A DNA stretch of 64,000 nucleotides from Thermococcus sp. M39 (lineage in GTDB: Archaea > Methanobacteriota_B > Thermococci > Thermococcales > Thermococcaceae). The DNA is taken from positions 141,211 to 205,210 of the forward strand of contig NZ_SNUG01000002.1 in NCBI RefSeq assembly GCF_012027325.1. Direction: 5' to 3'. The notes beneath the pieces were generated by a model. The model was not told where the DNA came from, did no database searches, and was given only the letters and a program-made list of their open reading frames with translations. This document shows, piece by piece, positions 37,261-53,566 of the stretch. The position numbers and the translations under genes are program-made. Every line of letters begins with the position of its first letter. The first letter of the stretch is position 1.

Positions 37261-37318
37261 AGCGGATGATGGGCCTTGCCCAGTCTGAGCGGTGATGACG
37301 TCGGTATTAGCTGACGCT
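37261..37318 (+). ncRNA. C/D box guide sRNA
   Basis: All four boxes are present in order: C-like ATGATGG (37266-37272), 12-nt spacer, D' CTGA (37285-37288), GCG, C' GTGATGA (37292-37298), 12-nt spacer, D CTGA (37311-37314). AGCG (37261-37264) pairs with CGCT (37315-37318) as a terminal stem. The spacers GCCTTGCCCAGT and CGTCGGTATTAG have the standard archaeal 12-nt length. TTTTAAG at 37232 is a suitable TATA box 25-30 bases upstream. By the D+5 rule the second guide would direct methylation of the U in 5'-CUAAU. Only the last base of the C box departs from consensus. Confidence 0.85.
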
Positions 37319-52288: not shown

Positions 52289-52957
52289 TCAATCCAGCAT
52301 TCCCAAAATCTTGTCAACCTCGTTTGCTATCTCAACGTCAAACAAGTATATCGTTGGTAAAAGCCACCAGAGGCGGTAGTTGTGTATTTTATTCTCCTCC
52401 CCGTAATATTGGAATACAAACCTACCAAAGCCTGTCAAATCTCTGTGGATGTCTCTAACTTCTCTGAGAACTCTTCTAACTTTTGGCGGATATTCTTCAT
52501 GAGGTATTGGAATGCTTTTTGTAAACACATTATCCTTGTAAAAATCTGTAGTTAATCCTACGCTGTTGACATACTTCAAAAGCTGCTTAAACTTCTTTGC
52601 TTCCCAGAAGCGCTTAAGGATCAGCCTTGGGTCTTCCTTTGCCAGAGGAAATGTCTGCTCGTCCTCTTCGAGCCAGAAAACGAGATAAGGCTGCCCTTTC
52701 TCAATGATAATCTTAGCTAAAAGTCTTGCATTTGAAGGAATCTCCTGTTGTGTTTCTGTGATGTGATACTCCTTTCCTTTCACGGTGTATGTTTCTCCTT
52801 CCTCCCTTTCTCCTGCCCCTGAAACGAAGTAAGCCCTCTCACCTTCTATTGTTCCTAAATGCAAATCATAACCCCATGCTTTTAAATCTTTGAACTTAAA
52901 TCTCCTTTCTGCTGGCACTACTCCAGAGTTCTCAACTATATAGTACCCCTCAAGCAT
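52289..52957 (-). CDS. Conserved hypothetical protein
   Basis: A 222-residue soluble protein: N-terminal beta-rich part (GYYIVENSGVVPAERRFKF, GTIEGERAYFVSGAGERE) and a helical C-terminal part (VRRVLREVRDIHRDLTGFG, LWWLLPTIYLFDVEIANEV). No motif points to an enzyme class. Ribosome binding site is weak. It is downstream of the DUF371 gene and the sRNA on the same strand. Confidence 0.62.
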   Translation of the reverse strand: MLEGYYIVENSGVVPAERRFKFKDLKAWGYDLHLGTIEGERAYFVSGAGEREEGETYTVKGKEYHITETQQEIPSNARLLAKIIIEKGQPYLVFWLEEDEQTFPLAKEDPRLILKRFWEAKKFKQLLKYVNSVGLTTDFYKDNVFTKSIPIPHEEYPPKVRRVLREVRDIHRDLTGFGRFVFQYYGEENKIHNYRLWWLLPTIYLFDVEIANEVDKILGMLD

Positions 52958-53006
52958 TTTTCTTCACCAAAAGTTAATAAAAACTAAGGGATATTTAAAT
53001 CTTTGG

Positions 53007-53059
53007 TCAGCACTTAAAATCCTCATCATCTTTTCATCAGCGCTGCGCGGGGTCATCAT
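53007..53059 (-). ncRNA. C/D box guide sRNA overlapping the 3' end of the DUF371 gene
   Basis: On the minus strand the order is C ATGATGA (53059-53053), 12-nt spacer, D' CTGA (53040-53037), seven bases, C' ATGATGA (53029-53023), 12-nt spacer, D CTGA (53010-53007). All four boxes match consensus exactly. The first spacer CCCCGCGCAGCG is inside the last codons of the DUF371 gene, whose TGA stop is part of D'. The second spacer GGATTTTAAGTG is complementary to CACUUAAAAUCC, which resembles the anticodon loop of tRNA-Leu(UAA); the D+5 rule then selects U34. Probably processed from, or transcribed within, the DUF371 transcript. Confidence 0.85.
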
Positions 53060-53471
53060 CTATGATTAGCTCAATGATGGCTTTTTGATTTGGATTTTTT
53101 AATTTTTCAATTATTCTTCTATCAATATCTTTAGCCGCTTTGTTTGCCTTAATTGCAAGGGTTCGTCCATCAACATAGGTGCTTTTTCGTATGACCATTG
53201 AAACATCGTTTTCAAAAGTTAAACACTCATCTCCAGAGGCTATGATTTCATCAACAAGATCATCAACAACAATCCTAATTCTGATCTTTTTCCCGGATTT
53301 AAGGGCTTTTTTAAACTCATCGCTTAAATCTCTGAGGGCCTTATCAGCCTTAATGCAGATTATGCAGTCTCCTTTGGGAGTCAAAAAGTCTTCCCTTGTA
53401 ATCTCCAGAGTTGATTTGTGAGTCGCTTTAACGTTTTTGTGTCCATAGCAGTGGATTGTTTCCTTCAGCAT
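53037..53471 (-). CDS. DUF371 family protein
   Basis: A 144-residue archaeal protein of unknown function (DUF371). Signatures: IHCYGHKNVKATHKSTLEITRE, DFLTPKGDCIICIKADKA and SMVIRKSTYVDGRTLAIKANKAA. The last codons (IIDDDPAQR) also encode the C box, first guide and D' box of the sRNA above. GAAGGAAACA context before ATG 53471 is poor in ribosome binding sequence. Single-copy in many archaea by memory. Confidence 0.85.
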   Translation of the reverse strand: MLKETIHCYGHKNVKATHKSTLEITREDFLTPKGDCIICIKADKALRDLSDEFKKALKSGKKIRIRIVVDDLVDEIIASGDECLTFENDVSMVIRKSTYVDGRTLAIKANKAAKDIDRRIIEKLKNPNQKAIIELIIDDDPAQR

Positions 53472-53566
53472 GGTTTAAACTCTAGCTGGAGATTTATAAA
53501 CATAGCACCCCCCAGAGAGCAAGATATTAAAGGGAGTAGCAATCTATATGATAGTGGGATGATACT

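What the first reader, a model, noticed from the sequence alone, without database searches (positions are those of the whole stretch)
53007..53059. C/D box sRNA embedded in the end of the DUF371 gene, guide fits tRNA-Leu(UAA) wobble base
Boxes are perfect. The D' box contains the DUF371 stop codon, so one stretch of DNA codes protein and guide RNA. The second guide pairs with an anticodon-loop-like CACUUAAAAUCC, and the D+5 rule hits U34. The outermost pair may be a mismatch (stem position 30), which is tolerated next to the D box.
Basis: partly seen in the sequence, partly recalled or inferred. Interest (0 to 1): 0.65.

Follow-up and report, generated by a model that had tools for sequence, protein, structure and literature searches.

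The report
tRNA-Leu methylation guide overlapping DUF371 gene
The end of a protein gene in this heat-loving archaeon (Thermococcus relative) also encodes a small guide RNA whose two guides both fit the same leucine tRNA; the RNA is of a known type, and the less expected part is that it sits in a different gene here than in Pyrococcus and has shaped the last residues of the protein.

Summary
Confirmed. Window 53059→53007 (minus strand) is a textbook archaeal C/D box sRNA: ATGATGA-12nt-CTGA-7nt-ATGATGA-12nt-CTGA. The DUF371 stop TGA (53037-53039) lies inside box D'. No such pattern arose in 150 simulated 64-kb sequences. tRNA-Leu(CAA) mismatches exactly there. Both targets were already predicted for Pyrococcus, and 3'-overlap with a stop codon inside the sRNA is common, so this is a new member of a known kind. 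New here: in 7/7 genomes of this genus the sRNA sits at the DUF371 end; in 7/9 Pyrococcus-like genomes it sits at another locus; in five of those the DUF371 spot holds a different sRNA (sR30 model, matched in both scanned) using the same Asp-Asp codons as C box. The tail PAQR uses rare, invariant codons, so the RNA appears to dictate the protein end. Expression and methylation are untested.

The parts
53007..53059 (-). C/D box sRNA gene (dual guide, tRNA-Leu(UAA) U34 and G47)
53053..53059 (-). Box C, ATGATGA; also encodes Asp-Asp of DUF371
53041..53052 (-). D' guide CCCCGCGCAGCG; 10 contiguous pairs with tRNA-Leu(UAA) variable region/T stem, D'+5 = G47; codes (Asp)-Pro-Ala-Gln-Arg
53037..53040 (-). 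Box D' CTGA; its TGA (53037-53039) is the DUF371 stop codon
53030..53036 (-). D'-C' spacer TGAAAAG (7 nt; 3-5 nt in the Pyrococcus-like copies)
53023..53029 (-). Box C' ATGATGA
53011..53022 (-). D guide GGATTTTAAGTG; pairs with anticodon arm of tRNA-Leu(UAA), D+5 = U34
53007..53010 (-). Box D CTGA
53037..53471 (-). DUF371 gene (PF04027, 144 aa); tail DDPAQR lies beyond the Pfam domain and inside the sRNA
53492..53500 (-). TATA-like TTTATAAAT about 20-30 nt upstream of the DUF371 ATG; likely promoter of the shared precursor (read from sequence, inference)
52991..53000 (-). TATA-like ATTTAAATAT just after box D, likely promoter of the UPF0128 gene (inference)
52289..52957 (-). UPF0128 gene (PF03673); directly follows DUF371 in several genus g4 genomes without an sRNA between them

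Best explanation
An archaeal C/D box guide RNA, cut from the 3' end of the DUF371 mRNA. Bound by L7Ae, Nop5 and fibrillarin, it places two ribose methyl groups on one tRNA, tRNA-Leu(UAA): the D guide on wobble U34 and the D' guide on G47 in the variable region. It is the counterpart of the Pyrococcus guide already predicted for U34 and for G47. In this genus the gene lies in the DUF371 end, where the last codons (GAT GAT GA) serve as box C and the D' guide is translated as Pro-Ala-Gln-Arg before the stop in box D'. Shown: boxes, pairing, conservation, overlap, different location in the two genera. Inferred: processing from the mRNA, RNP assembly, methylation, single origin followed by relocation.
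For: Four canonical boxes, 12-nt guides, no such pattern in 9.6 Mb of simulated sequence. D guide 11/12 pairs to own tRNA-Leu(UAA) with D+5 = U34, discriminating against CAA (predicted duplex -12.7 vs -8.6 kcal/mol). D' guide 10 contiguous pairs to the same tRNA; no other tRNA or rRNA exceeds 7 in register. Both guides, in the same order, in 7/7 genus g1 and 7/9 Pyrococcus-like g3 genomes, although nothing outside the sRNA is shared. Both guides share letters the tRNA does not demand (G next to D in 14 of 14 and next to D' in 13 of 14; T opposite G37 in 13 of 14), pointing to common descent. PAQR is encoded CCC GCG CAG CGC in all 7 g1 genomes, while only 37% of other amino-acid-invariant codons are codon-invariant; usage in this window is CGC 5%, GCG 8.5%, CCC 16%. 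In G004 the same stretch ends an unrelated Asp/Glu racemase in ...SDEPAQR. Literature: a U34 guide for tRNA-Leu(UAA) in three Pyrococcus species (PMC7994747) and predicted G47 in P. furiosus (PMC7668247).
Against: No RNA or methylation data. Below the gathering score of the generic Rfam family. The D' complementarity alone is not overwhelming: 0.65% of shuffled guides do as well against this tRNA, 5.7% against any tRNA, so conservation carries the case. Wolff et al. did not detect G47 methylation among the P. furiosus tRNAs they analysed. tRNA-Leu(UAG) could also pair weakly with the D guide (7 WC + 4 G:U). The tRNA target sites do not vary between the two genera, so no compensatory changes are available.
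Confidence: 0.9

Rival explanations
1. Real guide for U34 only; the D' guide has no methylation target and is fixed by the coding sequence (an orphan guide made by the overlap).
For: For Pyrobaculum, tRNA-directed sRNAs are described as having one active guide and one without target (PMC7994747). G47 methylation was not detected in P. furiosus (PMC7668247).
Against: The D' guide is also conserved in four Pyrococcus-like genomes where the sRNA is not in a coding region (G005, G007, G009, G011), and uses rare codons where it is. Coding constraint explains neither.
Confidence: 0.2
2. The sRNA acts mainly as an RNA chaperone on tRNA-Leu(UAA): the GC-rich D' guide keeps the variable arm/T stem from pairing with the D arm; methylation at G47 is secondary.
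For: The unmodified tRNA is predicted to prefer a non-cloverleaf fold (-46.3 vs -40.9 kcal/mol) in which exactly the D' target strand pairs with the D arm; guide 1 duplex -24.3 kcal/mol.
Against: Energy model without modifications or proteins; shuffle z-score only -1.07. Most genomes of the family keep this tRNA without a detected sRNA.
Confidence: 0.1
3. A chance C/D-like pattern inside a coding end, with no RNA function.
For: No expression data in hand.
Against: Zero in 9.6 Mb simulated; 14 genomes, two genera, different loci, same two guides; own tRNA fits.
Confidence: 0.02
4. The U34/G47 guide arose twice independently, at DUF371 in g1 and near the racemase in Pyrococcus, rather than changing place.
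For: No shared flanking sequence; the D half differs from the widespread Leu(CAA) guide by only two core letters, so it could be re-derived from it.
Against: Two guides in the same order, with the same non-required letters; the Leu(CAA) sRNA has a different D' guide.
Confidence: 0.15

Closest known systems
Pyrococcus C/D box sRNA predicted to methylate U34 of tRNA-Leu(UAA) (Clouet d'Orval et al. 2001, cited in PMC7994747; P. furiosus G47 prediction of snoRNAdb cited in PMC7668247)
   Same: Same two predicted targets; same boxes and near-identical guides in the Pyrococcus-like genomes.
   Different: Different genomic site (DUF371 end instead of the racemase/DUF996-like locus); D'-C' spacer 7 nt instead of 3-5 nt. 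The 2001 paper itself is not held, so its sequence was not compared.
Thermococcales tRNA-Leu(CAA) wobble C34 guide sRNA
   Same: D guide half nearly identical (GATCTTGAGTG vs GATTTTAAGTG, then CTGA); its D' guide also fits Leu tRNAs (TTGCCGAG, D'+5 near G10).
   Different: Targets the CAA isoacceptor at C34; found in nearly all genomes listed, versus only g1 and g3 for the UAA guide.
sR30 (Rfam RF01134)
   Same: In five Pyrococcus-like genomes a C/D sRNA of this type occupies the same DUF371 3' end, with box C in the same Asp-Asp codons; of the two scanned with Rfam, both (G008, G012) match sR30.
   Different: Both guides differ; the DUF371 stop is in its D' guide, not in box D'.
snoPyro_CD (Rfam RF00095)
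   Same: Generic Pyrococcus C/D model; best match here, and two orthologues exceed the threshold.
   Different: This copy scores 34.9, below 45.
pre-tRNA-Trp intron C/D guide (Cm34, Um39)
   Same: Dual guide whose two guides serve one tRNA, including position 34.
   Different: Intron-encoded in its own target; here encoded in an mRNA end.

Membership tests
archaeal C/D box sRNA | Boxes C (RUGAUGA), D' (CUGA), C' (RUGAUGA), D (CUGA) in order within 50-60 nt | tested here: met
   All four perfect, 53 nt
archaeal C/D box sRNA | About 12-nt guides with target pairing whose 5th position from D/D' is the methylated nucleotide | tested here: met
   D guide 11/12 to tRNA-Leu(UAA), U34; D' guide 10 contiguous, G47
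archaeal C/D box sRNA | Conserved in related genomes with guides held more strictly than flanks | tested here: met
   14 genomes, boxes and guide cores conserved, flanks not
archaeal C/D box sRNA | Expressed as a small (often circular) RNA bound by L7Ae, Nop5, fibrillarin | not testable with these tools
   No RNA-seq available
Rfam snoPyro_CD RF00095 | Score at or above the gathering threshold of 45 bits | tested here: not met
   34.9 bits here; orthologues L169 46.2 and L168 45.7 pass
Pyrococcus tRNA-Leu(UAA) U34/G47 guide | Same two guide-target pairs in the same order | tested here: met
   Pyrococcus-like g3 genomes (genus inferred from Rfam sR30 and snoPyro matches, handles unnamed) carry both guides
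Pyrococcus tRNA-Leu(UAA) U34/G47 guide | Same genomic position (synteny) | tested here: not met
   g1 at DUF371; g3 beside a racemase or DUF996-like gene
Pyrococcus tRNA-Leu(UAA) U34/G47 guide | Um34 and Gm47 present in the mature tRNA | not testable with these tools
   G47 not detected in the P. furiosus tRNAs analysed

The most novel reading that the evidence does not exclude
[quoted passage not shown] This would be a concrete route by which archaeal C/D sRNA genes move or exchange.
Probability: 0.3. Interest if true: 0.55.

Novelty: new member of a known kind. Interest (0 to 1): 0.35.

Why it matters
It gives a checked example of one 53-nt stretch under two constraints, where the RNA seems to set the protein tail. 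[quoted passage not shown] It also suggests that tRNA-directed guides in Thermococcales use both guides on one tRNA, unlike the pattern reported for Pyrobaculum.

Tried and rejected
rRNA targets for either guide: best in-register runs 7 or less, weaker than the tRNA match as a whole. Idea that the sRNA hops within Pyrococcus: rejected; the racemase-side and DUF996-side contexts differ by an inversion of one gene block next to the sRNA (order c2- c3+ c4- c1- c0+ then sRNA, versus c0- c1+ c4+ c3- c2+ ... sRNA). A first mismatch pattern for the guide was wrongly spaced and its result is not used. Compensatory change: looked for, none possible because tRNA target sites are identical in g1 and g3. 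Original 2001 paper not held. The sigma-70-type promoter/terminator scan found nothing and is not apt for archaea.

Full report
OBSERVATION. Read on the minus strand, 53059→53007 is ATGATGA CCCCGCGCAGCG CTGA TGAAAAG ATGATGA GGATTTTAAGTG CTGA: four perfect boxes and two 12-nt guides. The strict pattern occurs once in the window and never in 150 simulated 64-kb sequences with the same dinucleotide content. The DUF371 gene (53471→53037, PF04027) ends with TGA at 53037-53039, inside box D'.

TARGET OF THE D GUIDE. There is no tRNA in the window, so the genome's tRNAs were located and identified. tRNA-Leu(UAA) has the anticodon arm GACUUAAGAUCC. D+5 is U34. tRNA-Leu(CAA) fails exactly at position 34. 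tRNA-Leu(UAG) can pair only with four G:U pairs. Predicted duplexes: -12.7 (UAA), -9.5 (UAG), -8.6 (CAA) kcal/mol.

TARGET OF THE D' GUIDE. It forms ten uninterrupted Watson-Crick pairs with GGCUGCGCGGGU of the same tRNA, more than with any other tRNA or rRNA of the genome (at most 7 in register). The variable region reads U-GCC-GGAG-GGC-U-G-C before the T stem, so the D'+5 nucleotide is G47. By shuffling alone this is moderate evidence (0.65% against this tRNA, 5.7% against any tRNA). Conservation makes it strong.

CONSERVATION. The exact D half was found in all 7 genomes of the window's genus (g1; contigs shared with named Thermococcus MAGs including one labelled T. paralvinellae) and in 7 of 9 genomes of g3, but in none of the 78 others. 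All 14 carry both guides in the same order. Nothing outside boxes and guides is shared between the two genera. With up to three mismatches the other genera show instead the Leu(CAA) guide TGATGA-N-GATCTTGAGTGCTGA. The mismatch list is truncated, so absence of a diverged UAA guide, for g6 in particular, is not proven.

RNA DICTATES THE PROTEIN END. The Pfam domain ends at residue 137 of 144. The tail PAQR is CCC GCG CAG CGC in all seven g1 genomes, whereas 37% of the other amino-acid-invariant codons are codon-invariant. In this window CGC is 5% of Arg, GCG 8.5% of Ala, CCC 16% of Pro codons. In G004 the same sRNA overlaps an unrelated Asp/Glu racemase, which ends ...SDEPAQR. In G006 and G008 the racemase stop falls in box C instead.

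WHERE IT SITS. In genus g4 genomes such as G024 and G028, DUF371 is followed directly by the UPF0128 gene, with about 35 nt between. In g1 the sRNA and a TATA-like stretch lie between the shared flanks: an empty and a filled site. In five g3 genomes (G004, G006, G008, G009, G012) the DUF371 end holds a different C/D sRNA, using the same GAT GAT GA codons as box C. It was scanned with Rfam in two of these, and both match sR30, RF01134 (73.9 bits in G008, 41.3 in G012). In G005, G007 and G011 an ATPase-like ORF lies between DUF371 and that sRNA. Some g5 genomes (G076, G080) have GATGATGAG there with no sRNA. The tRNA-Leu(UAA) guide of g3 lies elsewhere, beside the racemase or a DUF996-like gene (name from memory, not tested). 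These two contexts are one locus related by an inversion of a gene block. So one change of place, between genera, needs explaining.

HOW IT PROBABLY WORKS. DUF371 has a TATA-like TTTATAAAT shortly before its ATG. The sRNA has no evident promoter of its own and is probably trimmed from the mRNA 3' end, as is typical: most archaeal C/D genes depend on neighbouring transcripts, and internal boxes suffice for maturation (PMC7994747). The RNP would then methylate U34 and G47 of tRNA-Leu(UAA). Processing, assembly and methylation are inferred.

COMPARISON WITH THE KNOWN. [quoted passage not shown] A quarter of archaeal C/D genes overlap a 3' gene end and contain its stop codon (PMC7994747). For P. 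furiosus, G47 of tRNA-Leu(UAA) is listed as a predicted C/D target, but was not detected in the tRNAs analysed (PMC7668247). Hence: a new member of a known kind, in a new place. That one sRNA serves one tRNA with both guides differs from the rule given for Pyrobaculum, and the widespread Leu(CAA) guide may do the same, its D' guide matching UUGCCGAG of Leu tRNAs.

LIMITS. No RNA data. g1 and g3 tRNA target sites are identical, so there is no covariation test. The order of events at DUF371 (replacement of an sR30-type sRNA, or two independent arrivals) is unresolved.

Noticed in passing
DUF371 3' end in L277 (G008), L280 (G012), L273, L275, L278: A C/D sRNA of the sR30 type (RF01134 confirmed in L277 and L280) occupies the same DUF371 end in Pyrococcus-like genomes, with box C in the same Asp-Asp codons and the stop TAG in its D' guide.
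   Followed up: partly
L274, L276, L279 (G005, G007, G011): A 442-aa ATPase-like ORF lies precisely between DUF371 and the sR30-type sRNA, as if inserted at the junction.
   Followed up: no
L213-L242 (Leu(CAA) guide loci): The near-universal tRNA-Leu(CAA) C34 guide has a D' guide (CTCGGCA) that matches UUGCCGAG of Leu tRNAs, D'+5 near G10: possibly also a two-guide, one-tRNA RNA.
   Followed up: partly
L311-L317: In Pyrococcus-like genomes an inversion of a racemase-containing block has one breakpoint right at the sRNA, changing whether the sRNA overlaps a gene end.
   Followed up: partly
window 37262-37317 (+): Another C/D sRNA, Rfam snoPyro_CD, 50.5 bits.
   Followed up: no
tRNA-Leu(UAA), G000:C1:416476-416563(-), read as L079 98-185(-): The unmodified tRNA is predicted to prefer a non-cloverleaf fold in which the D' target strand pairs with the D arm.
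   Followed up: partly
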